Of a DNA stretch of 64,000 nt, positions 1,536 to 30,354 are shown piece after piece. The first letter of the stretch is position 1. The number at the start of each line of letters is the position of its first letter. The translations under genes and the position numbers were made by a program. The notes under the pieces were generated by a model. That model saw nothing but the letters and a program-made list of their open reading frames with translations, did no database searches and had not been told where the DNA came from. This DNA comes from Trissonchulus latispiculum (Eukaryota; Nematoda; Enoplea; Enoplida; Ironidae), in assembly GCA_030248195.1 (NCBI GenBank), contig JASAND010013578.1:1-64000 (forward strand). The letters are read 5' to 3'.

Positions 1536-3030
1536 TGTGATGGGTGGTCTAATGTTTCGTGTGTGATGGGTGGTCTAATGTTTCGTGTCTTTGTACAGTT
1601 GTTTCTGATGGTTTTGGTGGTAAATACACCCTCCTTTTTGGACACTAAAGGAACTGATGGAAAATTCCTGTTTTTGTACAATTTGCCTGACTGTCGTTAT
1701 CTGATATCTGAAAATAGTTTTGTTCAGTTCGGTTGGCAATTAATGGGTTCATGAAAGTGAAAAATATTTGATAATAGGCTTATCTTGCAGAATTTTGGGG
1801 ACAAAACGGGACAAAACGAAACCCCAAGAAGCCCTTGAGCAAACCATTTTTCATCTTAAAAGATTAGTTTCCTTTCTTATCGAAAAGAATTACGGTTACT
1901 CTAAAAGACTCTTGCGCTTGCCGAAAGGACCATGACTGACAGGACAAAGACTTAAGACGCTGGGTGACTGACCCAGCTACAATTTTGTTTTGGACCCAAG
2001 AGAATCAGTCTAGTCTGGGGGCAGGCTCGCTATAGTTCGGTTGCGTTGTGGAAGGGTAATATCCCAATTTTCAATACTGTTTGGGAGCTTTGTGGAGAGC
2101 CAGTTGAAGTTGGTTTTTGGCCGCTAGTGCTCTGCTGAGAGGGAGCTGTGCTCAGCCAGAGGTCTATTTCTTGCCTATCACGTGTACACCTGTGCCCCGT
2201 ACGTTAAACTAACCTCTACCTTTCACCGGATTTTATTCGATCTATTTCGACTGCCTGCTTCTGCCGTGCACCGCACAATTTGTCCTGTTTTCCGTGGATC
2301 TTTTGGTAAGAGTAAGTCTGAAGTTGGAACCGGTACACAGATCGGTTTGGATAATATTTGTAACTAATTGAACCAGATTCGAAAATTTACTAAAAGCTGA
2401 AAAGACTCTTCTGCCTTCGTTTTCGATCTTTTCCAAGGGATTCTGTAGTCCGTGGTTAGAAGTGCAACTGTTGCTATTTAGTTGAGTTCTGTTCTTGCTT
2501 ACGTACACTTGCATTGTGATCTGTCTTTGGGTAAAACATCTGTTCCTCTTGTACTATTACTTCCTGTCTGTGCTCTGTGCTTTACTGAGTTTGTTACCTA
2601 TATTGTTTATTTGTACTTAAACCTGTGAACTTAATAGAATCAAAACTTTGAGTCTTGTCTCCCATAGGGAATGACTGTTGGCATCTTCTGATTAGTAACT
2701 TGAGCTGCACAGCGATACTGATACTTATGACAGATAGATTGTGTGATAGTTATTATTTGAATATGTTAAGTGGTTTCCATAGTATATTTGGAGGACGGGC
2801 AATCTAAGATAGTTTAAAGCTACAGATTCAATAAACCTGAAGAAGAGGCACCGGAGTCGGTGTGGAACAGAGCTAATTAAACTAGAAGGATTTTTCAATT
2901 GTAATAACTTGGGCTAATTTGTGGGTTGGAGGCGTAAATCCCCTGGAAAGTCCTAAGAGAGCGTAAAATCCAGTGCAACCGAGAGTTAAGCTTTGATTAA
3001 AATAAACCCTAGAAAGCCTATTTTATTACA
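1536..3030 (+). repeat. 5' LTR of the giant retroelement
   Basis: About 1495 bp, starting TG and ending CA. A 26-bp unit at the start (1536-1561) is tandemly duplicated at 1562-1587; the 3' LTR has only one such unit. The last 135 bp (about 2896-3030) are identical to the end of the 3' LTR, including an AATAAA polyadenylation-type signal near 3001. The upstream part aligns only loosely with the 3' LTR (shared blocks such as GCTGGGTGA and GTGACCCAG). Transcription of the element would begin here. Confidence 0.8.
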
Positions 3031-3032
3031 TG

Positions 3033-3050
3033 TGGAGCCCCCGGTGAGGA
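3033..3050 (+). promoter_or_regulatory. Primer-binding site
   Basis: TGGAGCCCCCGGTGAGGA begins two bases after the LTR's terminal CA. TGG pairs with the universal tRNA 3' CCA, so this is the expected place and start for minus-strand priming. I could not decide which tRNA it matches. Positions 3051-3495 form a non-coding leader before the gag start. Confidence 0.6.
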
Positions 3051-3495: not shown

Positions 3496-5286
3496 ATGCC
3501 AAATGAGATAGCTGAGGTCGGGTTGCCTGGACAGCCAGGGTCCCGGGCAAATTCCCCTGAGTCAGTTAGCAGAGAAAGTCAAATTTTGGAAAAACTGACT
3601 GACACATTGACAGACTTCAATTCTGCTATTAGGGCACAGGGAGTCGCCGCAGCGTATAGTTCAGTGCCCATCTATCATGGGTTGCCCTCAGAGCCCTTCG
3701 AGGAGCACCTCGAAAAGTATGTTCGATTTTGTCAAGTTATGGACTTTGATGAGGGACAAAAAGTTTTGACGTTTTCAAGTTCGCTCGAGGGTAGAGCATT
3801 AGAGCAGTTTAGGTCAGTCCCCAAAGCTAGCCGTGGGACATGGGCCGAAATGGTCGAAGCCGCTAAGAAAGTTATGATTCCGCCGCATACGGCGTTACAT
3901 GCCTCTTCTCTCATGTTTCAAGTGAAACAGGAGAAAGGTGAGCCCGTAATGGACTACCTGATGAGGCTGAACAGATACGCGCGATTGAGTTTCACTGAAA
4001 AAGACGGTTTCTCTGAAAATCAGCTAGAGTTACTGAAATTACGTTTATTTTTGTTTGGATTAAGGAGTGATTTAAAAGCTCGCGTGCCTCCAGGCTGCAA
4101 AACGATGGAGCGCGCTGTCGAGAAAGCTTTACAGGCTGAGGGTGAATACCCCGGTGAAGCCTATCCGTCTTTTATCGAGCCAAATTTCAGAAGCGGCCAG
4201 GATACGCCGGCAGCCATCGCAGAGGCAGAAAAAGCCGTTAGGGAACTGAAAGCAAAATTTGAAAAATTTGAATTGGATTCTAAGCAAGGTGGGAACTCTA
4301 GCCGAAATGGAAAGGGACGAGATCTGCCCCCGGGTACCACCTGTTTTAACTGCAACAGGCCGGGGCATGTTCGCAGGGAATGCCGCCAACCTGGCGGAGG
4401 GGCTTATCGAGCCAACAATCAGAGCTCAGATCGAAACTTTCAGAGACGATCAGATGGAAATAGGAATTACAGAAATACCAACAACTATTCGAATCGTAGA
4501 GAGGGTAATTATGACCAACCTGGTCGCAGGGATAGCTATGAGCGAAATGACAGGAACTATCAGGGCGATCGCAGAAACGATCAGGGTCCTAGGCGAGAAC
4601 GTTATGATAGGAATCAAAATTTTGATCGTAGAGATAGGGGTCGGGATTTTCCCCCAGAAATGAAAAGGGAATACGGGCCTAAGTTCGCGGTTTCCTGCTC
4701 CAGAACGCAGGAAGGAAACCAGCATTATGAGGATGGGTATAGGTCCGGGCGTCAATCGAGTGGCTCAGGTTCGTCATACAGTGACTATCAGGGTGATCGG
4801 TACGCCGGTGAGCAATATTACTCACCCCGTCGTAGGAGAGATTCGAGACCAGATTCGTCCGGACAGTATTCCGTTCGGACAACCCGAAATGTTTCGAAGA
4901 ATTGTCTAATGCATGCGAAGCGCTGTTTGGCTTCACCACACTTTCAACACAAAGTTTTAATGTGCCGACAGCCCTTAATCTGTACCTGTCGGGCACCTGA
5001 ACCGAACATGTACTATGATCGGCCCGTATTCAGGCCGCCGAGTGCTAGCTCCCTTACCTCCACTGATGAGGAACTGTTTGTCCCGGTTCCGCGCAACTCT
5101 ACCCGCATGCCGAATACAAGGAGGGTTCGAAAAGTCCATGAACCCATTGTAGACACGAATACCGTCTCCATTCAGTGTAATCTTGAAATTTCCGGACATC
5201 CCTGTGAGAACCAGGACACTGGAAAAACTGGGTCTAGTCTAGGCTTATTTTCCCCTGGGGTCATGTGTTTCTTGTGGGTCCTAACC
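3496..5286 (+). CDS. Gag (capsid and nucleocapsid), in frame with Env
   Basis: The ATG at 3496 opens an 860-codon frame that runs to 6078; this entry is its Gag part. Residues about 55-215 look like a gypsy-type capsid (retrotransposon gag domain), with the usual tryptophan-containing helical region. A single CCHC zinc knuckle lies at C283, C286, H291, C296. It is followed by about 180 residues rich in R, N, D, Y and G, a likely RNA-binding tail. The frame then runs, without a stop, through a linker with several cysteines into the signal peptide of the Env-like protein. Gag would assemble the particle and package RNA in the cytosol. No stop separates Gag from Env. Confidence 0.85.
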
Positions 5287-7150
5287 ATGTTATTTCGAAA
5301 TCTGAAAAAGGTCGCCCTGCCCGCTGCATGGGTATTATTGGCGTTTTTGGTGTCGAAGGCCAATGCACAAACTCAGGCAGACACCGACTCTTCTCGATTC
5401 TTAGCAGATGAGATAGCCAAAATTGGGACGTTGGTTTTACCTCGTTGGGGAGCAGTTTTGAGTCCCGCTGGGATAGGGGTTATCTCCCAAAAGACCGAGT
5501 ATCTAGCCCTAATAGTTCAGTTGGCTGTACCCCCAATGTCGCCTCAGTGGAAGCCCCCGGAATGGGCCAACGAGGAAGATTGTATTGACCTTACTACCGG
5601 AAAGACTAAGACTGATCAATATTGCGTTCGTATGATAAATCAAAGTTGCCCGCAGTTTGATTACCTAGAACGTGAAATTGATGCTATAAAGTTAGAGTAT
5701 CAAAAACTTTATTCTGGAGTCTTAAATACGCACTTCTATTCGAAACTGCTGTCTAGTTTATGTCGTTCTACTCCTGGAGTTTGTACGTCCTACCCGGCAC
5801 CCGAACAGGCACACAGTCGACCGAAACGTTTTATCGAATTCTTACTAGCTGGGGCCTTGGGTTTAGGTGGACTAGCGAATAGTTTGGCTAATACTTATCA
5901 TATGGGGCAGTTGGATAATCGGGTCTCTGCAGTTGAGCATGGCTTTAACGTTCTGCGGGAGGATCAACTTAAAATTACGGACTCTATTAAAAGAATAGTT
6001 CATGCTAATGAGCAAGTCTACGCATTTTTACATCATATGGTTCAGGATTTTCACTACGTTCACTACGTTGATTATTAGAGCTAGGTGTTCTAACTTCTCA
6101 TACATGCGACAAATTTATATGCAACTTTTGGCACATATTTTCACCTCGTCCTTGAGAGATGGATTAAATTCTGTTATGCGTGCCGGACTACATTCGGAGA
6201 TCAATCCAAATTTGATAAATTTGCAAACTTTAAAGGGAATTATTAGAACTCATCCGTCATTGCGAAATTCTTTGCTCAGGCAAGAACCTAGTTTGATTTA
6301 CCAGTTCGGAAAAGTTTATCCGATCAAAATTGACTTTAACACTCTCCGCTTTGGGTTTATGCTCGAAATTCCGGTACCATTGGAGAAAGAAGTTCGCCCG
6401 CTTTATGCTATTCACAATGTGGGATACAACTCTCGTGAGAACGGAATTACTGCGCTAGCTCCTTTGCCAAATTACGCGCAAAGACTGGACACTGGTGAGG
6501 TCCGCGAAATTGATGTTTCAGAATGTAAAACTGCACCCGGACTATGGTTCTGTCCACCCAACGCTATTATAACCAGTTTGAAAGCAAAGTGTCTGCAAAT
6601 TTTGATTAGTCACTCTGTTGAGCGCGTAGGCCAAGAGTTTGAGCATTGTCGCACAGCCATACAGGTTAAAGTTTTGGACAATTCTACTATTTACCGTACA
6701 ACGCCCGCTGGAGTTTTAATTAGAACAAATTATACTGAAGTTATAGTCGCACGTTCGCCTTCTTTGAATCACGTTGCTGAAGGCGAGAGGGTAGCTGTCC
6801 CAGCTACCGGGACACTCTGGTTCGAACATGGACGCTATCTTCATTTAATTATTGGCAACACTATTTTGACTAGCACTTTAGGTGTAGCGAAAACTACTGT
6901 AACCACTTCTGAGTTAAAAGAAACTATTGTTCCCGCCCCTTTGGGTCGGATCCCACTGCACTTTACTGAACTTTCAACTGCTGAGTATGAGAATGAGCAG
7001 GCAAAAAATTTAATCCAAAGTCAGGTCAAGAATTACGTGCATTTGCCCCTAATACCGTTAGAACTGAAACATGGGTTAGTAGTGGTGATAGTTATAGTCT
7101 TGCTCGGATGTTGTATAGTATGGTGGATCACACCATGTGGCCGAAAGTTT
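5287..7150 (+). pseudogene. Env-like class I fusion glycoprotein, frame-broken
   Basis: A methionine at 5287 (residue 598 of the first frame) starts a typical signal peptide ending near ANA/QTQ. A surface-like domain follows, then a furin-type site RPKR (residues 775-778), a hydrophobic Ala/Gly-rich fusion-peptide-like stretch and a heptad-like segment. This frame stops at 6078. The rest lies in the next frame, open from 5999: cysteine-containing ectodomain at about 6500-6660, then a transmembrane segment near 7070-7140 and a basic cytoplasmic start. The layout resembles errantivirus Env and baculovirus F proteins (established family features), but I see no decisive sequence identity. The frame switch at 5999-6078 may be a mutation, a sequence error or recoding. 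The protein would act at the cell or particle membrane. Confidence 0.65.
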
Positions 7151-7760
7151 CGGGCTAAAATTAGAAGTCGCAAGAGCCCCTCGCCTCGACCCGAGCGACC
7201 AGGTATCTCTGCACCCGTCGAAAGCCTTAGGTTACAGGAGCCGCTTTTTAGTGACGATGAGGAGGAAGCCCCCGTAGAGTTGGGAAATTTATCTGTCAAG
7301 AGTGACCCTATGCCGTACCGACCACGGGAAAACTTAGACGTTAACTTGGCAGAACGAAACCGTAGGTCTATGGCCAATCGATGCCACGCGACCACACACT
7401 ATAAGCCTATGTCCCGGGACACGTCCTACGCGTCTTCCATGTCCGACTACGGACGAGATCATCTTGATCTTAGTACGCGACCCCCCACAGATGACAGTCA
7501 GGGGAGTCAGCCATCCCCGCTCATAGATTTTGGGAATAGTAAGAGTAAAGAAGGTCGAATAGTACGGTTCTCGTGTCAAGCTGTTGACAAAGAATCAGAG
7601 GGAGAACATAGCGAATCGCCTGTTCATACACAGGCCGATGCGGCCACGAGTCCTTTTAAGCGGCACGTCAGGCCGATCAGTCCAGAATCTGACGGATCTG
7701 GACCACACACACGTCTTGGGACTAGGAACTCTGGTAGAACTGTGAATGCTCATTCTGTAC
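7151..7760 (+). CDS. Linker between Env tail and protease
   Basis: About 200 codons of the second long frame (5999-10294) lie between the Env transmembrane segment and the first protease. The stretch is acidic, serine-rich and basic in patches (SDDEEEAPVELG near 7248), with no recognisable domain. It would be the cytoplasmic tail of Env and a spacer to Pol if both are made as one chain. Disordered composition is seen; any function is inferred. Confidence 0.5.
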
Positions 7761-8640
7761 TAATGGTACGAACTATACCCTTAATGATTAGCTTACTTCT
7801 GGTAGGTAGACCGGTAGATGCGCTTTTTGACACAGGCTCATTATTATCTGTCGTATCACAAGGTTTAGTAGAGAGGTTAGGTCTGACCCCTATACCTGTG
7901 GACACAGTTGGCTCACTTCGGACCGCCAACGGAGGGAAATGTCAAATTTTGGGGTACGTAAAAATGCCTATTCTTTTTCGTGGAGCGGAAAAACGTTTGC
8001 CTATTCACAACTGGAAATTTTTGGTCGTCGAAAAGCTCACTACTGAATGCATCTTGGGTTCTGATTTTATGGTAACATTTCCGGGTGAGATTTCTCTAGA
8101 TCTAGGACAGCATACCATAACTTGGCCCTCGATCGATGGTACACGAGTAACTTTACCGTTAACGTTGCCCACAAAATCTAAGGTGCAAAGACCTTTGCAG
8201 ATTGGAACATTAAGACGTGAATGTTGCACCTGCTGTTTAGAGGACGGAATTGTCTCGACACCGCCTCGCCCCCTACCTATGATTTATGTAAATTTGAAAG
8301 GGCAACCCGTGCAAACTTTACTGGACACGGGTGCAAATTTGAGCTTAATGAATGAAAGTCTAGCGAATTATCTAAATTTGAAAATTCTGCCTATGGACAG
8401 ACCATTGCGTGCGGAAGGTGTTAATGGACAAGCTTTGAAATTTCGAGGAGCTGTAAAAGTTCCAGTTGAATTCTACGATACTCCCGGAATTACGGTCGAG
8501 CATACCTTTTTAGTTCCGAAAGGTTTAGCTGAGGATTGTTTGATTGGAACAGATTTTCTGCATGAACATGGGGGTGATTTAACTTTGAGTTTTGCACAGG
8601 GAGAATTGAAATTGCTAAAACCGGAAAGACCGCCCATGAT
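7761..8640 (+). CDS. Two tandem retroviral-type aspartic protease domains
   Basis: Two aspartic protease units follow each other in one frame. The first has FDTGS (Asp codon at 7829) and the partner motif ILGSDF near 8051. The second has LDTGAN (Asp codon at 8324) and LIGTDF near 8540. Each has the D-T-G active-site loop and the hydrophobic-Gly motif of a retropepsin monomer. Retropepsins normally act as homodimers of one encoded domain; two in one chain could form a pseudo-dimer, as pepsins do. They would cut the Gag-Env-Pol chain on the cytosolic side. A hydrophobic stretch (IPLMISLLLVG, near 7777) precedes the first unit. Confidence 0.8.
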
Positions 8641-10294
8641 CGCAAAGTTAATTCATCACACACCCGTCACCCAAACTGCTTATAGAGTGTCGGCAATTAG
8701 GAAAGTTACCATTCCCGCTTATTCTGAAGTTACTGTGCCCGCCTTGGTTGAAAGTATGGAAAAATTAAAATACGATGGATTCTTTGAGCCTTCCGAATTG
8801 AAATTTGAAAGTAATGACTCAACTTTACAAGTCATGCCAGCAATGGTCAATTTGAGACAAAGACTAATTCCTGTTTTAATGAAAAACAAGACAGGCCACC
8901 CTCTAACTGTTTACGAAAATTCTACCTTGGGCAATGTCACGCCACAAAATGAACTTAGGAGAGGTCAAATTATGCGCGAGTATAAACCACTCGTCAATGA
9001 ACGAGGTGAGACAGTCTGTCTCAGAAATTCATTCAAGGCAAAATACGCATCGAGTGCTAGAGGAATCCAAAATTTCAATATTAACGTCTGCAAAATCAAT
9101 CGCCCATGCAAATTGAATGACCTCCCAGAGGCCATGCGTGAAATCTCCTTTGATAAAGAAAATTTGAGCGAGGACGAAATTGGGCAATTTCTAGGACTTC
9201 TGCATAGGAATAAAGTTTGTTTTTCACAACACCCTTTCGATATCGGAAAGTGCACAATTTTTAAGGCCCACATTAACACGGGTGAAGCGAAACCGATTTA
9301 TGCGACTCCGTATAGGTTGCCTGTACACTTGAGCCAGCCCTTGCTAGAGGAATTGACAGAAATGTTGAAATATGGACTAATTAGACCTTCGACAAGCCCT
9401 TGGAGCTCGCCCATGATCTATGTCCCAAAACCGGGTGGAAAATTGCGATTATGCGTAGATTTCAGGAAAGTTAACAAAATTAGCGATCCAGATGTCTATC
9501 CGATTCCTCGAATAGATGACATTATGACCTCTTTAAAAGGGGCAAAATATTTTTCGACAATCGATTTGAGCAAAGGCTTCAACCAAATTGAATTGGATAA
9601 CGAATCTAAGGCCAAGGCCAGTTTTAATACTTTTCATGGCCAGTTTGAATATAACGTTTTGCCTTTCGGGTTAAAATGTGCGCCAGGAAATTTCCAGCGT
9701 TGTATGGAACGAATTTTGGGGGATCTGCAATGGAAAAAGTGCATCATCTATATTGACGACATTCTAATTTTTTCGAAAACTTTTGAGGAGCATCTGGAAA
9801 TTATGCAGGAGGTTTTTGACAGATTACGTGCAGCTGATTTGAAAATGAACCCCGGAAAATGCCATTTTTTGAAAAAGTCGGTGACCTATCTTGGACACAT
9901 TATTTCGGAGCAAGGAGTTGAGCCGCTGAAAGAGCGAATTCAGGCTATTCATGATTTAGCTGTGCCTAAAAATATCAAGGATGTCGAAAGTTTTTTAGGA
10001 ATGTGCGCGTACTACGCTAAATTTATCAAAGGATTCGCACACTTAGCCGCACCACTTTATTCGCTAAAGAAGAAGGGACTTCGTTTTGTCTGGAATAATA
10101 CGCACCAGCAATCTTTCGATCTCCTTAAGAAAAGTTTAGTAGAGGCACCCGTGCTCGCTCACCCTGACTTGGCTAAAGGTTTTATTTTGCACACTGATGC
10201 CTCTGATTTAGGATTAGGAGCCGTTTTGTCTCAAGAACAGGATGATGGTAAATACCATCCTGTCGCTTATGCAGCACGGTCACTCAAGAAATAA
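8641..10294 (+). pseudogene. Reverse transcriptase and start of RNase H
   Basis: A gypsy-type reverse transcriptase with FSTIDLSKGFNQI (about 9550-9590), LPFGLKCAPGNFQR and the catalytic YIDD (codons 9749-9760, residues 1250-1253 counted from 6002). RNase H begins with HTDASDLGLGAVLSQ; its first catalytic Asp codon is at 10196. The frame ends at an in-frame TAA at 10292-10294, where RNase H homology plainly continues downstream. A second in-frame stop, TGA, lies at 10460-10462. The RT itself looks complete; the polyprotein is cut short in this copy. Confidence 0.85.
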
Positions 10295-12677
10295 GAGAGA
10301 AATTACTCCACACATGATAAGGAATGTTTAGCTATGAAATTTGGTATCGAACATTTTCGTCACTATTTGCATGGAGGCCCTCCCTTCACTTTATTTACAG
10401 ACCATTCTGCCTTGAGATGGTTAATGAAACATCCCCCTCGAAATTCTCGGTTAGCTAGATGACTTTTGACAAAGATGACAAATGACTTTTTCTGAATATG
10501 ATTTCGAAATCAAACATCGGAATAACCCACAACTTCGAAACGCTGACGGACTGTCACGAAATCCACTTTTCGCAGATATTGCTAAGGGTCTACTTGGGGA
10601 CGAAAAAGAGAATGATCGGAAATTCGTTCAAATTTATCAGGAGGAAAGTGAAGAGCTAGTTGCTCACATAAATTCCGTAGTCATTCGAAATGGAGCCCAG
10701 AGGGCTCGAGACCCTAATGTCTCAGTTGTCAACAAATTGCGCGCTAAGAAAGGGGTAACCACGGTTCGATCCAAAGTTTCGAAAATCTCGCAACCCTCTA
10801 GTTCTAGTAGCTCAGACGAAGAGAAGGGTCAACCCTCGCCGGAGAAGCAACCAAAACTGAAAGGCGCTGGTAAAATTTCCAGTTCGGATTCTGAAGAATC
10901 GGAACCCACGGTCAAAAGGACAGTTAGACCCAGAATCCTAGACCTAGACTACCCTAGCAAGGCATATGAGAAGTCCATAGAACCGCGATCCGAACGTCAA
11001 TCTTTGGATACTAGCCGTCCTAAACGAAATGACCCGGCTACAGCAATGTTTAGCGAGGTTTTTCACCATGCCGTACGCGATAACTCTAATGTTTCTCTTA
11101 ACCCTAAATCTTGGACAAAATTGCAAGCCTTGCAACGTGAAGATTTACTTTTGAAGGGGATTATAGATTACAAAGTTAACGGAAATCTACCCAGCAATTT
11201 TTATCTTGCTGTCAAAATTACTTCGCTAGCTGAGCAATGCGATATGCGCGATGACGTCTTAGTGCATTTAGAGAAAGTGAGAGATACCACTCTTGAAGTT
11301 TTAGCTGTACCCGAAAGTTTACGAGATGAGGCGCTTGCTGCATGTCATGATAGTCCTTACGCCGCACACAGTGGGCGAAATAAGACTTGTTTTCGATTGT
11401 CTCAACATTTTTGGTGGCCTGGAATGTATACGGATGTTAAACGTTGGGTGGAATCTTGCCCGCGCTGTCAAAAACGGAAAGGCCCACCCAAAAATCCAAA
11501 AGCACCTTTACAGCATGCTCCTATGGCTGTAGAGCCTTTTGAACGTGTTCACTGTGATCTCATGGACGTAAGCAAAGCTTCCAAAAGTGGTATGAAACAT
11601 ATTTTGAGTTTTGTCGACTCCTTTTCTAAATATGTCATTGCAATTCCTATTAAAAATAAGACAGCCTACACGGTGGCACAAAGTTTTCTCGAATTTGTTA
11701 TTTTGCAATATGGCTCACCAAAACTGCTCATTTCGGACCAAGGGAAGGAGTTTGTTGCGCTACTGAACAAGGAAATTTGCTCGCAAGTTCAAACTCGAAA
11801 ACTTGAAACTACTCGCTATCACCCCGCTGCGAATGGTCAAGTTGAACGTTGGCATCGGACTTTACTTGATATGTTAGCTACGGTAACCGAAAATCACTTA
11901 GAATGGGATAATATGGTCCCCTACTGCCAATTTGCCTATAACACTTCCATAAATTCGACTACAGGTGAAACTCCGCACTATCTTTTACACGCCTGGGATC
12001 CCGTTTTGCCTAGTGCAACTAACGTTTCTATACCTACTGACCGCAAATATTCAGGGTTTGATTATGTTAGAGAGGCGACTGAAGCCTTACAGTTAGCCTG
12101 GTCTTTAGCTCGTGAAAAAATAGGAGCTGCTCGAAAAATCCAGGATGCAAATTATAATCAAAATGCAGTTGAGCCGAAATTTCAAATTGGTGATTTGGTT
12201 ATGATTAAAGCATCTAATGTTGCAAAACGAGATCAGATTTACAAACTTTTGGATAAGAAAATTGGACCCTATCGTATAGAGAAAATTATTGGATGTGTCG
12301 CAGAGGTTTATCCCGCAGGAAATCGACGCGCGAAAAGAGTTAAAGTCCAGTTTAATAATATGTATCCTTGTGTCGAACCTCGTGTAATTACGGCACCTGT
12401 TCACGATCATGATGATTCAAATTCAGATAAAGACGAATCTCCTGCTCCTAAGGAGCGGCACTCGAAAGCTGCGAAAGTACCACCAGAACCAGAACCTCAT
12501 AAAACACCGCCTGCTGTTGATTCGTCCTCCGAGAATGAAGACCCTCGACCAGTCATTCGCAAACAGCCTAGCCGAAAATCTAAAATTACTCGTTCGGACA
12601 CCAGCCCAGAAAAACCGGCTGACAACCTCGAAAGCGAGTTCCACTTTCTCCTAAACAGAAAAGCGTTGCCCCTTTGA
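10295..12677 (+). pseudogene. RNase H end, integrase and C-terminal tail
   Basis: RNase H homology runs from 10295 in the old frame and moves to another frame near 10480 (an ATG at 10482 opens the new frame). The integrase has an HHCC zinc domain (H-x-H region near 11345, CPRC at 11458), and a core with D359, D419 and E455 (codons 11556, 11736, 11844). The 35-residue spacing between the last two is the classic D,D-35-E. A GPY/F-type module (KKIGPYRIEKI, near 12260) and a long charged Ser/Pro/Glu tail follow. It would insert the cDNA into chromosomes. The frame stops at 12677 inside a charged tail that continues in another frame into OTU. Confidence 0.85.
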
Positions 12678-13570
12678 AGGTTGCTGTTTCCTCCCAAGAT
12701 TCAGCTTCAGATTCCGATAGTATTCCCCAATTTATGGGTGAAGAATCTTTAACACCAGAAAAGGATCCCATTGCTTTTAACCGCAGGCATTTCTTTAATC
12801 CCGTGGATGCTCGTTGGCAACGTCATATGGCATTATTACGCGGGTTGCCAATTGACCATATCTTACCAGAGATGATGAGACACACCCCACTCCATGAGCC
12901 TTACGAGGTCATTAACGTTATTGGAGACGGGAATTGTTACTATCGTGCCATCTCCTTAGCCATTACTGGCTCTGAAGAGCATTGGGTACACATCAAGCGA
13001 GACCTACTTACCTTTCTTGAGACTTACGAGCATAAACGGCGTTTTCGTACACTTTTTAACGACTTGGAGTCAGTCAAGAATAGACTCACCAAAACCGCCG
13101 AATATGCCACTGATGATGAACTCTTTTTGACTGCTGCCTGGCTACGTACGCCTATACAGTCATATTCGAAGTTTGGTCCTGTTTGGGCTTGGCAACAATT
13201 CTTGCCAGACGCTTTGCTTGGATCAAGCCAAAGTTATGAGAAAAATTCACTTTATCTCTACAACGAGAACAGTGATCACTTCATGGTAGTGCTATCCGTG
13301 CAGACACCAGCCGGATACCAATGGCCTACCAAAAATGCACCCAAAATCTCGATTATGGAGTTGGTTTCAACCTCCTCCTCAAATCAGTCTTCCCCTGCCG
13401 ATGATCCTAAGAAATCCGGCAGATCCTCTGCACCTAATGTAGAGAAACTTTTCTCAGAAAGCCCTTTGTTTTCTGGGCCAAGTCCCCTTTTCCAGAATCC
13501 CTTTAGGAGGTCCAAACGTGGAAACGCCTCCTCCAGCCCTGCTTCGGGTCGTCACTCGTCTGAACAATAA
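12623..13570 (+). CDS. OTU-family cysteine protease domain
   Basis: This frame is open from 12623 and has no ATG before 12734; it overlaps the end of the integrase frame. It most likely continues the Pol chain after a frame change. The OTU signature is clear: VIGDGNCYYRAIS with catalytic Cys at codon 12935, and the matching NSDHFMVVLSV with catalytic His at codon 13277. The spacing (about 114 residues) suits OTU deubiquitinases. The tail is serine-rich. OTU proteins remove ubiquitin or ubiquitin-like tags; in a retroelement it could counter host tagging or trim the polyprotein, but that is inference. OTU domains have been reported in some retroelements. Confidence 0.75.
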   Translation, partial: QPRKRVPLSPKQKSVAPLKVAVSSQDSASDSDSIPQFMGEESLTPEKDPIAFNRRHFFNPVDARWQRHMALLRGLPIDHILPEMMRHTPLHEPYEVINVIGDGNCYYRAISLAITGSEEHWVHIKRDLLTFLETYEHKRRFRTLFNDLESVKNRLTKTAEYATDDELFLTAAWLRTPIQSYSKFGPVWAWQQFLPDALLGSSQSYEKNSLYLYNENSDHFMVVLSVQTPAGYQWPTKNAPKISIMELVSTSSSNQSSPADDPKKSGRSSAPNVEKLFSESPLFSGPSPLFQNPFRRSKRGNASSSPASGRHSSEQ

Positions 13571-14691: not shown

Positions 14692-15318
14692 ATGGCTCCC
14701 AAGTTGGTTGTAACGTCAGTTGAATCGGATGAAAAGATTGAAGGTGTTGCTGATCCAGAGTTTCCCTTGCCGTTAGATTGTCCTGAAACCTTAAGAGGTC
14801 CTCATCGTTGGAGTAGTGATTTGCCCGAAGGTCTCAGAATGGAGCCTGGAATGATTGATATCTACACAGATCCCCGTAGAGCTGAGTTGTTTCGTCCTAA
14901 TGTGCGTGTGCATTTAGTGTCCCAAATTGCCCAAATTTGCACGTTTTTGTGCTTGCAGTGTTTTTGGAGAGTGGGTTTAAGTTTTTATGGAGTTCCATTC
15001 GTGATTTTTCCATTGTCTGATGATGTGCGTTTGTCCCGTGATCCTCATAAGTTGCGTCTGCTTGAGCTTGTTCCCTCGTTAGGAGGTGGAATGTTTCGTT
15101 GCCCTAACATTAGGTGTCAGTGTCCCACAGTTGTTATTTTACATGAGCATGAGGATTGGTATTATGGTAACGGTGTGCAAGTGTTGCCTGCAGAGGCTAG
15201 GTTTCTGTTAAATAACATCCATCGTGTGTTCCCGTTGCATGTCCCGTGTGACGTCTTAGATTATCGTATGCGTATGTTTGGTGAGTGTCCACCATTTCAT
15301 CCTATAATCCTTAACTGA
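14692..15318 (+). CDS. Accessory protein 1, CxxC/CxxxxC type, unknown function
   Basis: A 208-residue ORF with a good ATG (14692). I do not recognise the family. It is clearly paralogous to the next ORF: both have an LCxxCFW-type motif followed by SFYGVPF or SYFGVPF, then FRCPN and a VILHE/IILHE block. Four cysteines (C87, C90, C137, C142, with an extra C144) are spaced like a zinc ribbon. Conservation of the pair suggests selection, and the place between pol and the 3' LTR is where retroviruses keep accessory genes. No signal peptide or membrane segment is obvious. Codon use is T-rich, unlike the pol region. Function cannot be inferred; metal binding is a guess from cysteine spacing. Confidence 0.65.
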   Translation: MAPKLVVTSVESDEKIEGVADPEFPLPLDCPETLRGPHRWSSDLPEGLRMEPGMIDIYTDPRRAELFRPNVRVHLVSQIAQICTFLCLQCFWRVGLSFYGVPFVIFPLSDDVRLSRDPHKLRLLELVPSLGGGMFRCPNIRCQCPTVVILHEHEDWYYGNGVQVLPAEARFLLNNIHRVFPLHVPCDVLDYRMRMFGECPPFHPIILN

Positions 15319-15504
15319 GTTCCTGATCCTTAAGACCATAAGTTCCATTTAAGATCCCTTTTCCTTATCTGTCCTGATCCTTTAGTCCTTAGTTCAATCT
15401 TTATGTAGACATTAGAGTAGAAGCAAATATAATACAGTGTGTGCGTGGAGTGAATGTTTAACTTACCCTTAAGATCCTAATTTCCCTTTTTGTTTTGTAG
15501 AATC

Positions 15505-16257
15505 ATGTCAAGTTACGTTACCCGTTGGTTGGCCCAGTGTGATCTGTTGAGTGAGGAGAGTGATGATGATTATCATTCGGCAGCTGCCTACCTGCCGTCG
15601 TCCTGGTCTTCCTCTTCTTCTTCTTCTTCGTCCTCTTCTTCTTCGCCGTCGTCCGGCATTCCGTGCTGGAGTCGTTCCCCTTCCGTCCTGCAGAAGGTCC
15701 ATCGGTTGAGATATGATCCCGGTCCCCCGGAGAGCTGTTGTCCATCGTCCGCTCAGCGAGGTCCAATGCGAGCCGAAAGCCAATTGCCGCCGGAGCTGAA
15801 GATGCTCCACCACCGTGGTCAGCGAGATGTCATCTACTGTGCGCCAGGTGCTAATGATAAGTTTGTTCCCCTCCGCCCCCTCTGTGTGTTGAGTTCTGAT
15901 GTGGTTGCGTGTTGCACTCTGTTGTGTGTGAACTGTTTTTGGAAATTTAGTTTAAGTTATTTTGGAGTGCCTTTCCGTTTTGTTCCTGCACCTACTAAGT
16001 TCCAGTTTTATGATTTTCCTACTAAGTCTTCTCTGTTGAGTTTAGTTCTTCCTAACCGTTCGCCTGTTTTCCGTTGTCCTAACAGGATCTGTTTGAGTTC
16101 TTCTACCATCATTTTGCATGAGATCCCTAATTGGCGTTTGCATGGCCCGTTCACTATTCGTAACCGGCATCCCATTTTTGTTGAAACTTTGTTGGATTGT
16201 TTGCCTTGTTTGCATGACCCTCCCATTCCGGAGGATTTTCTGAGTGTTGACTTTTAA
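15505..16257 (+). CDS. Accessory protein 2, paralogue of accessory 1
   Basis: A 250-residue ORF. I choose the ATG at 15505, because a strong 3' splice site (CCCTTTTTGTTTTGTAG, ending at 15500) lies four bases before it, suggesting a spliced transcript. The N-terminus is acidic (SEESDDDY) and then has a serine run of about a dozen residues. The C-terminal 140 residues match accessory protein 1: C141-x2-C144 with FW after it, SYFGVPF, C191-x4-C196 and IILHE. This gene arose by duplication within the element or shares an ancestor with its neighbour. No known domain is recognised. Confidence 0.65.
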   Translation: MSSYVTRWLAQCDLLSEESDDDYHSAAAYLPSSWSSSSSSSSSSSSSPSSGIPCWSRSPSVLQKVHRLRYDPGPPESCCPSSAQRGPMRAESQLPPELKMLHHRGQRDVIYCAPGANDKFVPLRPLCVLSSDVVACCTLLCVNCFWKFSLSYFGVPFRFVPAPTKFQFYDFPTKSSLLSLVLPNRSPVFRCPNRICLSSSTIILHEIPNWRLHGPFTIRNRHPIFVETLLDCLPCLHDPPIPEDFLSVDF

Positions 16258-17566: not shown

Positions 17567-17615
17567 CTTGGTCCAGTGGTGGTTGGTCCGATGGTTCGAT
17601 TCCCGGCCAGCAACG
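17567..17615 (+). repeat. tRNA-like A and B box remnant
   Basis: TTGGTCCAGTGG fits a Pol III A box (tRNA-Glu type) and GGTTCGATTCCCGG a B box, only about 25 bp apart, so an intervening part seems deleted. It stands directly before the minisatellite. It may be the stump of a SINE or a captured tRNA fragment. Confidence 0.4.
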
Positions 17616-17619
17616 TCAG

Positions 17620-18380
17620 CATTCCCCCGTCAGACCCTATCCCGGTCGCCAGAACAGCGTCAGCGTCAGCGTCAACGTCAGCATCGTCAGCATCCCCCGT
17701 CAGACCGTATCCCGGTCGCCAGAACAGCGTCAGCGTCAGCGTCAGCGTCAACGTCAGCATCGTCAGCATCCCCCGTCAGACCGTATCCCGGTCGCCAGAA
17801 CAGCGTCAGCGTCAGCGTCAACGTCAGCATCGTCAGCATCCCCCGTCAGACCGTATCCCGGTCGCCAGAACAGCGTCAGCGTCAGCGTCAGCGTCAACGT
17901 CAGCATCGTCAGCATCCCCCGTCAGACCGTATCCCGGTCGCCAGAACAGCGTCAGCGTCAGCGTCAGCGTCAACGTCAGCATCGTCAGCATCCCCCGTCA
18001 GACCGTATCCCGGTCGCCAGAACAGCGTCAGCGTCAGCGTCAGCGTCAACGTCAGCATCGTCAGCATCCCCCGTCAGACCGTATCCCGGTCGCCAGAACA
18101 GCGTCAGCGTCAGCGTCAACGTCAGCATCGTCAGCATCCCCCCGTCAGACCGTATCCCGGTCGCCAGAACAGCGTCAGCGTCAGCGTCAGCATCAACGTC
18201 AGCATCGTCAGCATCCCCCGTCAGACCGTATCCCGGTCGCCAGAACAGCGTCAGCGTCATCGTCAGCATCATCATCAGCGTCAGCATCATCGTCAGCGTT
18301 AACATCATCGCCAGTATCAGCACCGTCAGCATCAGCATCGTCAGCGCCATCATCATCATCCTCATCATCATCATCCTCAT
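17620..18380. repeat. GTCAGC-rich minisatellite
   Basis: About eight or nine tandem units of roughly 64-76 bp. Each has a fixed core (CCCCCGTCAGACCGTATCCC plus GGTCGCCAGAAC) and a variable number of six-base GTCAGC-type steps. It decays at the right into CAT/CATCAT runs (18240-18380). All three forward frames stay open across it, giving Arg/Gln, Ser/Val and Ser/Ala repeats; this follows from the repeat lacking stop codons and is not good evidence for a protein. It lies within the retroelement, upstream of the 3' LTR. Confidence 0.85.
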
Positions 18381-18833
18381 CAGATCTCCTGCCTGTGGCC
18401 CTGCCTGGCCACCTAACCTCCAACAGAACTGCTTGGACTATTGCCACAGTGACTGCCGAACTGTTTGGATTTCTGCCACAGATGATTCCTGGTCCCATCC
18501 TGCTCCGGCGCTGGTTGCCATGACTTGGTAACCTACTCCCTATAGACTGTTGGGAGTAGCTACAAACTCTCTTAGCGCCACCCTGATTCAGACCCTGGTC
18601 TAAAAAGTGAACAGTTTCATAAAATGTATGCATAAATGTATTGCTCTTATACACTGCGGTTTCTTCCTTTTGCCTAAAAAGGTTGGTAACTTTACTTGTG
18701 TTTGCTGAGTGGTTAGCTGTGAATGTTCGTGGTTGTGCCCCCGGTTTGCTCCTTTCGTCCTAAAAGGTTCCTCGGATTGACTCCTTTGGCTGACTACAGC
18801 TACTGTCATATTTGAGTGCAAAGAAAAAGAAAT

Positions 18834-18869
18834 TTTAAAGAAAGAAAGAAAGAAAGAAAAGAAAAGAAA

Positions 18870-18948
<79 letters not shown>

Positions 18949-18949
18949 T
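18834..18949. repeat. (GAAA)n microsatellite
   Basis: About 116 bp of nearly pure purine (GAAA) repeat. A second tract at about 19196-19281 follows a short CTTT run, so the two can pair as inverted or slipped structures. ORFs across both are repeat artefacts. Confidence 0.9.
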
Positions 18950-19184
18950 CCAATAATTTGAATTTACCCTGGCCTGGCCCTCAATGTTGTGATATTTGAT
19001 CTCTACCTTTTGCTTAACACTGACTTTGATGTAAACTTGGCTTCTTCTACTACACTACGCACGCATATATGCACGGACAGAGCCTGTGTATTAAGCCCAA
19101 GGTTTCCAAAACAAATGTCAATCAAATGTTGGACTGACCTTTGTTATCAAGAAACTTTGATTCTTGCCCCCTCTTTTCTTCCTT

Positions 19185-19198
19185 TCTTTCTTTCTTTA

Positions 19199-19242
<44 letters not shown>

Positions 19243-19285
19243 AAAGAAAAGAAAAAGAAAGAAAGAAAAGAAAGAAAGAATCTTT
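19185..19285. repeat. CTTT/GAAA microsatellite with hairpin
   Basis: A short CTTTC run turns directly into (GAAA)n at about 19196, forming an inverted pair. It lies about 145 bp upstream of the 3' LTR. It is purine-rich but not adjacent to the LTR, so it is not an obvious polypurine tract. Confidence 0.8.
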
Positions 19286-19428
19286 CTTTCCACTGAAATA
19301 TGACAGTAGCTGTAAAACCTAATCTGGCAAACTGTGAAGATTGCTTGTCTGGTATTTCGTTTTGTCTGTTTTTGTCTGTATATTTTGCCCCCCTAGTGTA
19401 ACTTTACCGGCTTTTTTATTGTGTGAAG

Positions 19429-21060
19429 TGTGATGGGTAGCCTACGTTTTGGCTGTTTTTGTCTGTATATTTTGGGGCCACTCTAATCTTTGTATTGCCC
19501 CTACTGTCCAGAGCCTACGAATCTTGACTGTCCAGAGCCTACGAATCTTGAATATGGAAAAGAAAGGTTTGAAATTGAAATGAAAGCGTACAGAATTGAC
19601 AAAAAGAACGATGTAACACTTTTGTTGGTTGTTGTTTGTTTGTTTGTTTGTTTGTTTGTTTGTTTGTTTGTTTGCTTAATTGTTTAATTGTGGTTAACCT
19701 AATCCGACAGCTAATACTATTAACTAATTGTACATTTTAATTGTGGTTATTGTGGTTAACTAATTTTAATTGTGGTTAACATGACGACTCTAGCCCCCTG
19801 TTTGTGACTGTGGGTGTGCATGGAAATTTCCTGTTTGTGTCTATTGCTGGGGTCGGTAACTGATTTATCTGAAAGTGGTCGACGAAAATATTTGACAAAC
19901 TACTTACCTGGGGAGTTTTTCGTCCCCAGGTAAGCCTCTTAGAAACCAATTTAGAAACGATAAGAAACGTTTTCCTTTCTAATCGGAAAAATTATGGCCG
20001 CTCGGTAAAAGACTTCCAACAGGCACCGCAAAATCCTGACTGACAGTTCAGTCAGGACAAAGAGCGATAAGCTGGGTGAGTGACCCAGTCTCTGTTTTGT
20101 TTTTCTCCAAGAGTCAGTCTTGGGGTGGACTCAGTGTAAGACGGTCGCACTTTTCTCTCTTCTTGTTGGTTACTATAGCTCAGGGTGAGCACAGTTCTTT
20201 TTGGTCGCTGACAGAGCGTTGACTCAGAAGGAGTCTGTTTTTCTTTTCTGATCTCGGTCGTCGTCTTTGCAGTCTACAGTTGAATACTAACCCCGGACCA
20301 AGCAATATTCTATCTATACCGCCTATTTCATTTTGCATTTTGCCTAGCCAGATTGTTTGGATCATCACCTCGGTAAGCGTAAGTCGGTCAAGAGGTCAGG
20401 CCGTTGGCCAGTTTGATTACCCAACTGAAGCAGTCACTTTCGAGAATTTGAGCTATTTTGCAGTCAGTTTTTGGGCTTGTTTGAATGTAACTTTAACTCG
20501 GGGTTTTCTAAATTTCATCGTATGTTTGGTATGCTCATTGTGTATGCACTGTGTACAGTCAGGTCTCTCAAGTTGTTGATATTGCCGTATTATTTGAAAT
20601 CGTTGTTGTAATCTTGCGTAACTCTTCCTGTGAAACTGTCTGTGCGATTGTATTCCTAGTTAATAGAACCCTAATAATTCTTAGTCTTTTCTCTCATAGG
20701 AATTAGCAGTAGATCTTGATTGTACTTAATAGGGTGAGCGAATTTGCCACAAAAATCATTAGCACGAATTGGACGTGTATTAATTTGATTAAGCTGCTGT
20801 ATTTCTTGTGTTCCCAATTAGTCTCAAATAGTCTCTGTGAATTACTTAGTGTGACCGTGTCACTATACCTGGAGAAGGGGTACCGGTATTTGAGTAGAGC
20901 AAGATAGCTGACCTATACTCTTTCTAAATTGTAATAACTTGGGCTAATTTGTGGGTTGGAGGCGTAAATCCCCTGGAAAGTCCTAAGAGAGCGTAAAATC
21001 CAGTGCAACCGAGAGTTAAGCTTTGATTAAAATAAACCCTAGAAAGCCTATTTTATTACA
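19429..21060 (+). repeat. 3' LTR of the giant retroelement
   Basis: About 1632 bp, starting TGTGATGGGT and ending TTTTATTACA. It contains a 22-bp direct repeat near 19510 (two copies of a unit containing CAGAGCCTACGAATCTTGA), a (GTTT)n run at about 19630-19673 and repeats of TTAATTGTGGTTAAC (19680-19785). The final 135 bp are identical to the 5' LTR; the rest is well diverged with many indels. The base run just upstream is not strongly purine, so the polypurine tract is unclear. Confidence 0.75.
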
Positions 21061-24364: not shown

Positions 24365-26026
24365 CTAATATTTTTCTGGTTCCTGTGGGGTAACATGAGG
24401 CTCTCTGAGGGTTTCCATGTCGACATATCCGGCACCCGGATATTCGGAATCTGCCGGATTTCGCCAACTGAACAGCTCAATTTCCGTATTCCGGGAGGGC
24501 AGGAAAAGCGACCGACAAATGCTTTTCCTTCGGTTGACAACAGCCAGCACCAGAATGACCAAAATTGTTCCCCAGAAAAATACCGAGCCCGGAATTAGAC
24601 CAATCAGAAAGTAGGGTTTCGAGTCACCGTAGCCTGCAGCGTAGGCTATCAGCCAGCGGATAAATAGGCTGAAAGCACCCAAAGCCAGCAAGCCAGTCAA
24701 CACAGCAGAGATGATCAGAAAAATCTTTTTACCGGTCGATATTGATCGACCGTACATGGCAACCTTAAAGATCAAATAAATCATTAGGCCAAATAATTCG
24801 ATAGAAATCAGCAAACAGATCAAATACGATGAATGTTCATCAACAACAGCTAGATGGTGTAGTTGGCTTTCTCCACAAAAAATTAATCCCAAAAGATAGA
24901 CCACAATCACCATGGCAACCGTAGTGATCAATCGAATAGATCTGCGATCGCACCGCCTTGGGAGAATGTCCAAAATCGATGAAATCAATACTTCGACCAG
25001 AGCAGCCTTTGCTAGAACGGTAGTTATGATAATCATAAGGTAGAAAAGTGATAGCCAAACTTTACGAACCGGGAGAAGGGACAAAATTTTCGGCACCGTT
25101 CCATATAAAAGGTAGTCAAAGCCCCCACCCGACATCACTTCCGTAACAGACAAGCCATGCGTGAAGGCATAAAATCCAGCATAAGATACCATGACCGTTC
25201 CTGACCAAATGTTAAATAAGAAATATAGAATCACAAAAATCACCAAATCAATCCCCCACAGGCAGAGATGATTTCCGGAATATTTCCGGAATTTCGTCAA
25301 AGTCGGATAAAGGCCCAGCCCGATTCCAATTCCATAGACCAAGGAGGAAGAAACTGTGTAACCGAAATTAGGATTCGAAATTCGGTCAAAATCAGGCACG
25401 AAAAAATGCTTTACTCCTTCACTGGCACCCTCCAGAGTGGCGGCCCGGATATAAAGCAGAATCATAATCACCAGGACCCCTCCAAAACCTAGGGTACTGA
25501 AAATCGCAAAACTCAACGGGCTGAAGGACAGACAAATTAGAACCAGGAAACAAAATACCAAATAGGCCACCGCGTGCGAACCGAAACTTAGCTTATCCAG
25601 GGCCAATTCTTGAAATCCTTGGGTCACATTTTGACCGAAGCCGACCTGATTTGACGAAAAATCACCCAAATTCGTGAACAAGACATAATAAAAGGCATAC
25701 ACACATTTGCTCACATAAGGCCCATATACGATAACTGTTAGGGCTGTTAGGAGCACAAAGGAGAAACCGAAAGCCTGAAAAATCGGTACAACCCTAAATA
25801 GTTTGATTATTCCCCGGGCATAGGTTCCGATGCTGAATTCGGCAACCAAAACTGGAAGGGCGAAGAATAGAAGCTGGAGACCGAAAACCAGCAAAAATGC
25901 TCCGCCCCCGTTGAATACGGTAAGAATAGGAATCCGTGTAAAAGGTGATATTCCCAGAGTTGCCATCAAAAGAGTTGGCACCAACAGGACTCGATATAAA
26001 ATCATCGGCACTGATTGACAGCCCAT
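24365..26026 (-). CDS. SLC6-like sodium:neurotransmitter symporter family
   Basis: A 553-residue intronless ORF with about 12 hydrophobic segments. Family marks include FNGGGAFLLVFGLQLL with FALPVLVAEFSIGTYARG in the TM1-TM2 region, the long TM3 loop with an N-glycosylation-type site (NVT) and a TM6-TM8 region with YPTLTKFRKYSGN and FYLMIIITTVLAKAALVEV. The highly conserved NVWRFPY motif of TM1 is replaced by SPFTRIPI, so ion and substrate binding may differ or be lost. The N-terminus is very short. It would move small amines or amino acids across the plasma membrane if active. The lack of introns suggests a retrocopy or a lineage-specific paralogue. The stop codon adjoins a SINE. Confidence 0.75.
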   Translation of the reverse strand: MGCQSVPMILYRVLLVPTLLMATLGISPFTRIPILTVFNGGGAFLLVFGLQLLFFALPVLVAEFSIGTYARGIIKLFRVVPIFQAFGFSFVLLTALTVIVYGPYVSKCVYAFYYVLFTNLGDFSSNQVGFGQNVTQGFQELALDKLSFGSHAVAYLVFCFLVLICLSFSPLSFAIFSTLGFGGVLVIMILLYIRAATLEGASEGVKHFFVPDFDRISNPNFGYTVSSSLVYGIGIGLGLYPTLTKFRKYSGNHLCLWGIDLVIFVILYFLFNIWSGTVMVSYAGFYAFTHGLSVTEVMSGGGFDYLLYGTVPKILSLLPVRKVWLSLFYLMIIITTVLAKAALVEVLISSILDILPRRCDRRSIRLITTVAMVIVVYLLGLIFCGESQLHHLAVVDEHSSYLICLLISIELFGLMIYLIFKVAMYGRSISTGKKIFLIISAVLTGLLALGAFSLFIRWLIAYAAGYGDSKPYFLIGLIPGSVFFWGTILVILVLAVVNRRKSICRSLFLPSRNTEIELFSWRNPADSEYPGAGYVDMETLREPHVTPQEPEKY

Positions 26027-26928
26027 GATTTGCTGATCTATCTTAGCTAGAAATAAAATAAAATTGTTAAAATTATTATCATCATCGTCATTGAATTAAT
26101 GTGAAAGATAAAAATCAGGATTGAAAGATGTGGAGAAAAGTGCTTGTATTGCTTATCTTTAACATAAGAGAAAGACTGCTCAATTTCACTAGATATTAGC
26201 AAGAGTACATAATATTAGAGTGTCCCTCTACGAACACTCTTATCAGAGTAAAAACTATGGTCTGTTCGATAACGACTCACCCTTCCTCCCTCAAATCAGA
26301 CCCTAGTGACCCCCGCAAATTAGACCCTAGTGATCCCCCCGCAAATCAGTAGCTAGTCGAAACGGGGTACGATCACTCGTATGTTTATGTGCTTACGCAC
26401 CAAAACACATGCAGTGTGCTAGCAAATTTTGTGCCTTCGTCGAGCTTTAGAACACAAACATAGCGCACACAATTCTTTGAAGTGATGAGTCTAATTTTCG
26501 GGGGGGGGGGGGGTGTCAGCCGTTAGCGAGCAGAGCATAGTTTTTGCTCTGATAACATAGAACATGCAGCATGCGTGCATTTTATGTACTTTGGAAAGTA
26601 TTAAGTCAGCCACAGGGCTTCAACCAGAAACGCGAATGTTCACTCGTTAGGCATGGGGGCGTGCCGCCAACAGCCAATGACATTGCTGCGACCCATCCCC
26701 ATACAGAGGGGGGTGGCGTCACAAGCGGACGCCTTAAAAACTCCCTCTCCGTTTGGGGTGGCATCGCCGCTAGCATACAAACAAACAATCAGATCACAAA
26801 AACTCCGCCCACAAGTTTTGGGTGAGGGCTTGAAAAGGATTTCGGTAGTTTTAATAAATTCACAAAAACGGTCCCCATTTGCCAATGTTAGACTGTCTTG
26901 GTCGTCTACATACTTCAGTCAGAATGTA
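26027..26928. other. Intergenic, no gene seen
   Basis: It contains a short tandem of CAGACCCTAGTGA/TAGACCCTAGTGA (26297-26335) and a run of about 12 G at 26502-26513. A GC-rich part at 26640-26830 gives ORFs in several frames but no recognisable protein. Confidence 0.35.
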
Positions 26929-30233: not shown

Positions 30234-30354
30234 CCCACGTATTCTGCGGTTGCATAGCTTTGCACTGTGAAATGACATTCATTATGCTGGTAGCCTACAG
30301 CTACAGAGTTTCCTGGAAGCCTGAGAAACCCTGAAAGATGCTACCAGACCACAT

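What the first reader, a model, noticed from the sequence alone, without database searches (positions are those of the whole stretch)
3496..10294. Env-like glycoprotein placed between Gag and Pol in a giant gypsy-like element
Seen: the Gag frame runs without a stop into a signal peptide, furin site and fusion-like segment; the frame carrying the Env membrane anchor runs without a stop into protease and RT. Known: in errantiviruses and retroviruses env follows pol and is made from a spliced RNA. Inferred: a Gag-Env-Pol chain could be made, with Gag and Pol both left on the cytosolic side because the signal peptide and the anchor make two membrane passes. I know of no described family with this order.
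Basis: partly seen in the sequence, partly recalled or inferred. Interest (0 to 1): 0.92.

Follow-up and report, generated by a model that had tools for sequence, protein, structure and literature searches.

The report
Retroelement with envelope inside its polyprotein
A large retrovirus-like element, present in many copies in this animal genome, carries its membrane envelope protein in the middle of one long protein, between its shell and enzyme parts, an order reported before in flatworms but not, in the papers searched, for this family.

Summary
In the window the Gag frame (3496-6078) runs open into an Env N-terminal half, and another frame (5999-10294) runs from the Env C-terminal half through two proteases into reverse transcriptase. 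A relative (P0001) matches both Env halves in a row (E 7e-17 and 1e-73) and is one open frame.
The host genome settles the order. Of 113 scored Env matches, 76 have a listed Gag and 81 a listed RT within 15 kb on the same strand: Gag upstream 76/76, RT downstream 81/81, order gag-env-RT in 56/56 with all three, 31 of them in one common open frame. OTU closes the IN frame in 12/12 copies sampled. The family is Gag-Env-PR-PR-RT-RH-IN-OTU in one ORF of about 3340-3400 aa; the window copy is broken. Env is under strong protein-level selection, and no invariant nucleotide block marks a recoding or splice site in it.
The order is in print: planarian Burro carries env in frame between gag and pol (PMC6431247). 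This is a new family and variant of that kind.

The parts
1536..3030 (+). 5' LTR (start approximate; TG...ACA ends, possible 4-bp TATA target repeat)
   Evidence: Alignment with 3' end of element, last 141 nt identical; termini read by eye
3032..3049 (+). primer-binding-site candidate beginning TGG after the LTR
   Evidence: Position and first bases only; tRNA not identified
3496..4473 (+). Gag (capsid domain about 3772-3990, CCHC about 4339-4389)
   Evidence: PF03732, PF00098; 123 scored matches in own genome
4474..5238 (+). Gag tail, open in frame 1, fast evolving
5239..5295 (+). conserved extra hydrophobic segment before the signal peptide
   Evidence: Hydropathy 1.96; present in 15/15 copies examined, the window included
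5311..5367 (+). signal-peptide-like segment ending A-x-A
   Evidence: A-x-A in 15/15
5368..6075 (+). Env N-terminal half, frame 1: RPKR furin-like site 5818-5829, hydrophobic fusion-peptide-like stretch 5830-5886
   Evidence: P0001 match E 7e-17; RxKR in 10/10 other copies examined
5999..6078 (+). overlap of the two frames: break seen in this copy only
   Evidence: 27 of 27 other fetched copies have the adjoining Env pieces in one frame
6071..7150 (+). Env C-terminal half, frame 2, membrane anchor 7073-7129
   Evidence: P0001 match 35%, E 1e-73; 113 scored matches in own genome
7151..7783 (+). tail and linker after the anchor, fast evolving, open
7784..8110 (+). aspartic protease domain 1
   Evidence: PF13650/PF13975; 33% like domain 2
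8267..8587 (+). aspartic protease domain 2
   Evidence: PF13975, PF00077
9422..9904 (+). reverse transcriptase
   Evidence: PF00078 E 1e-39
10091..10459 (+). RNase H, interrupted by a stop at 10292-10294 in this copy
   Evidence: PF17919, PF17917; P0001 tblastn runs to 10459
10479..12677 (+). integrase (H2C2 about 11307-11480, core about 11532-11807)
   Evidence: PF17921, PF00665; 114 scored matches
12623..13570 (+). OTU cysteine protease domain, last in the ORF in other copies
   Evidence: PF02338 E 1e-5; in frame with IN and last in the frame in 12/12 copies sampled
19612..21060 (+). 3' LTR (start approximate)

Best explanation
It is a multicopy Ty3/Gypsy-type LTR retroelement whose proteins are encoded in one ORF of about 3340-3400 codons, in the order Gag-Env-PR-PR-RT-RNase H-IN-OTU (shown on copies with long open frames). 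The window holds a decayed copy. Most likely the genomic RNA is translated into one membrane-crossing polyprotein (inferred). Gag is made in the cytosol, the signal peptide before Env opens translocation and is cut after A-x-A, the ectodomain is furin-cut in the secretory path, the anchor stops transfer, and the proteases, RT, IN and OTU emerge in the cytosol and are released by the element's own protease. Gag, Env and Pol would thus meet on one membrane without a spliced env RNA, much as flaviviruses make capsid, envelope and enzymes from one chain (recalled comparison). How Gag is made in excess, and what the extra hydrophobic segment does, is not explained. Confidence: order and single ORF about 0.95; polyprotein mechanism about 0.5.
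For: Own genome: gag-env-RT order 56/56, all three in one open frame 31/56. Env lies in frames of at least 3300 aa in 27/113 matches, and frame lengths of 3341-3396 aa recur on the same contigs for Gag, RT and IN. OTU is in the IN frame and closes it in 12/12. In an evenly spaced sample, 12/20 copies are open over about 4.08 kb from Gag tail to protease. Another 12/12 long RT frames without a listed Env hold Env there too. Selection: between copy groups Env pN is 0.04-0.15 with pS 0.80-0.87, against pN 0.10-0.34 in the proteases and 0.20-0.38 in the Gag tail. In 26 copies 413 of 622 Env columns are invariant, while only 3 of 402 invariant non-Met/Trp columns keep one codon. No invariant run of 9 nt or more over 14 copies from Gag tail to protease. 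No start codon before the signal peptide is shared by all: L028 has none in the last 126 codons. P0001 has Env-PR-RT in one frame. P0030, outside the window's ten-row RT clade and unresolved in place, is Gag-PF24664-PR-RT-IN in one 2490-aa frame.
Against: No RNA or protein data. A conserved second hydrophobic segment (15/15) would, if it spans, turn Env to the wrong side. One polyprotein gives equal amounts of Gag and Pol, a problem shared with other single-ORF elements such as Cer1 and most Troyka. P0001 begins with its own Met 39 residues before the signal segment, and its contig leaves about 2350 nt elsewhere, so there Gag may be a separate ORF (inferred from lengths). Splicing at sites that are not conserved is not excluded. 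25 of the 56 copies with all three parts do not have them in one frame, taken as decay but not proved so. The copies used for the selection tests were chosen as open, which favours intact ones.
Confidence: 0.6

Rival explanations
1. Env is expressed from a spliced RNA that joins a leader or the Gag start to the Env region; the open Gag-Env link is tolerated, and the Env-Pol link is cut by protease or by splicing.
For: Errantiviruses and retroviruses make Env this way (recalled). Cer1 of C. elegans makes a spliced protein from a single long ORF (PMC10309623 and PMC3315495, passages read). P0001 seems to start separately from Gag.
Against: No conserved nucleotide run of 9 or more over 14 copies from Gag tail to protease and no common start codon before the signal peptide. 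There is no stop between Env and protease in the copies open over that stretch, so a spliced Env would still carry Pol. The hydrophobic segment upstream is kept at protein level in the Gag-Env frame.
Confidence: 0.3
2. The Env segment acts as a retained intron: spliced RNA makes Gag-Pol, unspliced RNA makes the Env-bearing chain.
For: It would solve the Gag:Env:Pol ratio; Gag and Pol share one frame in intact-looking copies, so a skip of whole codons would keep the frame (inference).
Against: No conserved splice-like nucleotide blocks; no transcript data.
Confidence: 0.12
3. Chance or insertion: an env fragment inserted into one copy's Gag-Pol.
For: None found; the window copy is broken.
Against: Same place in 28/28 fetched 4-kb pieces (one is the window) and 12/12 further pieces, and in P0001; open runs far beyond shuffles.
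Confidence: 0.01

Closest known systems
Burro (GYPSM1) giant Gypsy-like elements of planarians (PMC6431247, section 7 read)
   Same: LTR Gypsy type, very large, one ORF from a Gag with CCHC to Pol, env region in frame between Gag and protease, extra domains tied to ubiquitin pathways
   Different: Burro ORF1 is 4873-5140 aa with BCL2, MATH/TRAF, BIR, ankyrin, dUTPase and SUMO-like parts, and its env is reported to resemble gypsy and mononegavirus fusion proteins. Here about 3350 aa, doubled protease, OTU at the end, Env with no detected relative outside this genome but P0001. Burro sequence was not at hand, so kinship is untested.
P0030 (unnamed metagenome protein, 2490 aa)
   Same: Gag - fusion glycoprotein (PF24664, E 1e-14) - hydrophobic segment - PR - RT - IN in one frame
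   Different: Env shows no detectable similarity to this one; RT outside the window's clade, place unresolved
Errantiviruses (gypsy), Metaviridae
   Same: Gag, Pol and an Env with signal peptide, furin-like site and anchor (recalled)
   Different: Env encoded downstream of integrase (PMC7879559, whole text)
Cer1 of C. elegans
   Same: One long Gag-Pol ORF without stop between gag and pol
   Different: Extra CERV part towards the C-terminal end (alignment of residues 1871-2272), made from spliced RNA (PMC10309623 passages)
Anakin (BEL-Pao with chuvirus glycoprotein)
   Same: Retroelement with captured viral glycoprotein
   Different: BEL-Pao, not Gypsy type; glycoprotein captured from chuvirus; its place in the element was not checked (PMC7642597 passages)

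Membership tests
Metaviridae / Ty3-Gypsy LTR elements | LTRs, Gag with CCHC, pol order PR-RT-RH-IN | tested here: met
Metaviridae / Ty3-Gypsy LTR elements | Env, where present, downstream of integrase (ICTV profile) | tested here: not met
   RT downstream of Env in 81/81 Env matches with a listed RT
Errantivirus | env after pol | tested here: not met
Errantivirus | Env related to baculovirus F or gypsy Env | tested here: inconclusive
   No Pfam match to an envelope family at E up to 10 for the Env pieces or for 11 Env rows; the few matches listed have E 0.15 or more and unrelated names.
Burro-like elements | env in frame between Gag and PR in one ORF | tested here: met
   Gag, Env and RT in one open frame in 31 of 56 copies; Gag tail to protease open in 12 of 20 sampled
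Burro-like elements | BCL2, MATH/TRAF, BIR, ankyrin, dUTPase parts | tested here: not met
   None in Pfam scans of the window ORFs (E up to 0.1 or 10); OTU instead. Profile-profile methods were not used
Burro-like elements | RT sequence kinship | not testable with these tools
   No Burro sequence among the sequences reached
Class I viral fusion proteins | furin-like site followed by a hydrophobic fusion-peptide-like stretch, anchor near the C-terminus | tested here: met
   By motif only: RxKR 10/10, hydrophobic stretch and anchor; heptad repeats not scored
Class I viral fusion proteins | fold | tested here: inconclusive
   pLDDT 33.5; weak match of the Env-C piece to a fusion glycoprotein F0 in the PDB, E 0.17, absent with profiles

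The most novel reading that the evidence does not exclude
A recently active, selected lineage of retrovirus-like elements makes all its proteins, a membrane-spanning Env and an OTU deubiquitinase-like protease included, from one unspliced message as a single membrane-threaded polyprotein, a flavivirus-like plan in a retroelement.
Probability: 0.4. Interest if true: 0.78.

Novelty: new variant of a known kind. Interest (0 to 1): 0.62.

Why it matters
It turns a single literature case (Burro) into a testable family: 113 scored Env matches in one genome, strong selection on the Env protein, saturated silent sites, near-identical recent copies, and no conserved nucleotide block inside Env that could be a recoding or splice signal. 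Whether a retrovirus-like element can place Env in the middle of its polyprotein, and how it keeps Gag and Pol cytosolic and in ratio, can be asked directly with RNA and protein data from the host. The end-of-ORF OTU domain adds a link between retroelements and ubiquitin.

Tried and rejected
Led nowhere: a protein search with Env-N as part of the 864-aa ORF (no hit; P0001 was outside its length limit) and with P0001's Env (only itself); six viral-contig scans and two genome-contig scans, in two of which (45, 46) the pattern came from a misaligned tail; structure prediction of P0001's Env (no fold search made because of pLDDT 33.5); Pfam and PDB for Env. P0094 has two hydrophobic segments between Gag and protease and falls in the window's ten-row RT clade, but its Env-like part shows no similarity, so it is not counted as support. 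Insertion, chance and a programmed frameshift in Env were rejected because of the other copies. The OTU search of the genome did not complete; fetched pieces replaced it. Papers: ten full-text searches, of which I saw the listings; passages read, an outline, one section, a whole text. No listed title or abstract start names this family. Two listed papers hold both 'OTU-like cysteine protease' and 'LTR retrotransposon' (PMC4067079, PMC11520807) and were not opened. Subscription papers are missing from the library.
Full report
Observation. The first holds Gag (PF03732, CCHC) and then a signal-peptide-like segment, an RPKR site and a hydrophobic stretch. The second holds a strong membrane anchor (hydropathy 3.0, 7073-7129), two aspartic proteases, RT and RNase H. 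Integrase (10479-12677) and an OTU domain (12623-13570) follow. LTR-like ends lie at about 1536-3030 and about 19.6-21.06 kb; their last 141 nt are identical while U3 is much diverged.

A relative. P0001, a 1705-aa protein from an assembly labelled Nitrospirales but plainly a retroelement, matches Env-N (23%, E 7e-17), Env-C (35%, E 1e-73), protease (34%) and RT (56%) in the same order in one frame. The Env halves of the window abut in P0001, so the window's frame change inside Env looks like a break of this copy. The copy also has a stop in RNase H and a later frame change.

Other copies in the host genome (733.8 Mb, 21,732 contigs, unnamed). The Env-C piece gave 113 scored matches out of 917 candidates, 109 without a stop inside. 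Gag gave 123 of 2182 candidates, RT 132 of 5942 and IN 114 of 6304; only the best candidates are scored, so these are lower bounds. Of the 113 Env matches, 76 have a listed Gag and 81 a listed RT within 15 kb on the same strand: Gag upstream in 76/76, RT downstream in 81/81. All three are listed for 56, with order gag-env-RT in 56/56 and one open frame of equal length in 31/56. Env lies in frames of 3000 aa or more in 38/113 and 3300 or more in 27/113. No copy with env after pol was seen, but the other 57 Env matches could not be judged for all three.

Fetched copies. Besides the window (L002), the seven best matches (L001, L003-L008) and an evenly spaced sample of 20 (every fifth row; row 85 replaced by 86 because it lies at a contig end) were read piecewise. 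Gag tail, Env-N, Env-C and the post-anchor linker are in this order in 28/28. The Env-N stretch next to Env-C is in its frame in all 27 other copies. 12 of the 20 sampled are open over the whole piece of about 4.08 kb; the other 8 carry stops or frame changes at various places. Twelve more copies with RT in frames of 2900 aa or more but no listed Env carry Env at the same place, 80-83% like the window's Env-C. In 12 of 12 further pieces chosen from long frames, OTU continues the IN frame, ends it, and keeps GDGNC. The unit is thus Gag-Env-PR-PR-RT-RH-IN-OTU.

Selection. Between three groups of open copies (2, 6 and 6 copies) silent differences are near saturation (pS 0.72-0.87 over the six regions). 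Amino-acid-changing differences in Env stay at 0.04 (A-B) to 0.15 (A-C, B-C), below protease (0.10-0.34), linker (0.12-0.36) and Gag tail (0.20-0.38). Mean dS values in that call leave out saturated pairs, so pN and pS are quoted. In 26 copies, all chosen as open, 413 of 622 Env columns never change, yet only 3 of 402 such columns (Met and Trp left out) keep one codon, and no three neighbouring codons are invariant. Over 14 copies no run of 9 or more nt from Gag tail to protease is invariant. This is against a conserved recoding site, splice site or RNA element there, within the limits of alignment in the Gag tail and of short signals. The RT matches listed are more alike still (95-100%). Close pairs such as L032 and L033 are 99.95% alike, a sign of recent copying. 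Patchy identity (L024 v L025: 82-97% up to the anchor, 99-100% from the linker on) points to recombination between copies.

Topology. In the window and 14 open copies two hydrophobic segments, about 20 residues apart, precede Env, the second ending A-x-A in 15/15; no stop lies in the 130 codons before. Start codons nearby differ from copy to copy, and L028 has none in the last 126 codons. This keeps the Gag-Env link at protein level but leaves the first segment unexplained: if it spans, the ectodomain would face the wrong side. It may be a hairpin, or may be cleaved or used only in part.

What Env is. It has the layout of a class I fusion protein (signal, ectodomain, RxKR, fusion-like stretch, anchor), but no sequence kin was found outside this genome except P0001: no convincing Pfam or PDB match with single pieces, the 3-row or the 11-row profile; one weak match to a fusion glycoprotein F0 (E 0.17) was not repeated with profiles. 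The structure model is not usable.

Known kinds. ICTV places Env of Metaviridae after integrase (PMC7879559). [quoted passage not shown] P0030 is another one-frame Gag-Env-Pol protein, with a different Env (PF24664) and outside the window's RT clade, while P0101 carries a PF24664 Env after Pol. The RT tree of 121 rows puts the window with P0001 (99/80) and P0003 (100/99) in a ten-row clade with P0094 (100/98). So the order occurs with more than one Env type; its origin is untested.

Verdict. Observation confirmed; arrangement real and general among the copies judged in this genome; not unprecedented; mechanism likely a membrane-threaded polyprotein but unproven.

Noticed in passing
1536-3030 and about 19612-21060: The two LTRs are identical over their last 141 nt but only distantly alike over U3; one reverse-transcription event should give equal LTRs, so the element may be a recombinant.
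   Followed up: partly
1411-1483: A tRNA gene (Rfam) ends about 50 nt before the 5' LTR, as if integration were aimed at Pol III genes.
   Followed up: no
7784-8110 and 8267-8587: Two aspartic protease domains in tandem in one frame, 33% alike; P0001 shows a Pfam match for only one.
   Followed up: partly
14692-15318 and 15481-16257: Two ORFs 38.6% alike over 132 residues with no significant Pfam match, between OTU and 3' LTR; whether they belong to the element was not tested.
   Followed up: no
50412-55245 and 59174-63996: Inverted repeat of about 4.85 kb, 97.9% identical.
   Followed up: no
30325-31275: Copia-type RT fragment (PF07727).
   Followed up: no
24365-26095 (minus): Uninterrupted ORF of the sodium:neurotransmitter symporter family (PF00209).
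   Followed up: no
17579-18365 and 18802-19292: A tandem repeat of about 76 nt open in several frames and long GAAA arrays inside the element's 3' part.
   Followed up: no
L024, L025: Copies 99-100% identical downstream of the Env anchor but 82-97% upstream: mosaic copies.
   Followed up: partly
P0001: Retroelement protein filed under a bacterial MAG (Nitrospirales), probably contamination by animal DNA.
   Followed up: no
P0101: Protein with Gag-Pol-Env in one frame, Env (PF24664) at the end, 33 member sequences.
   Followed up: no
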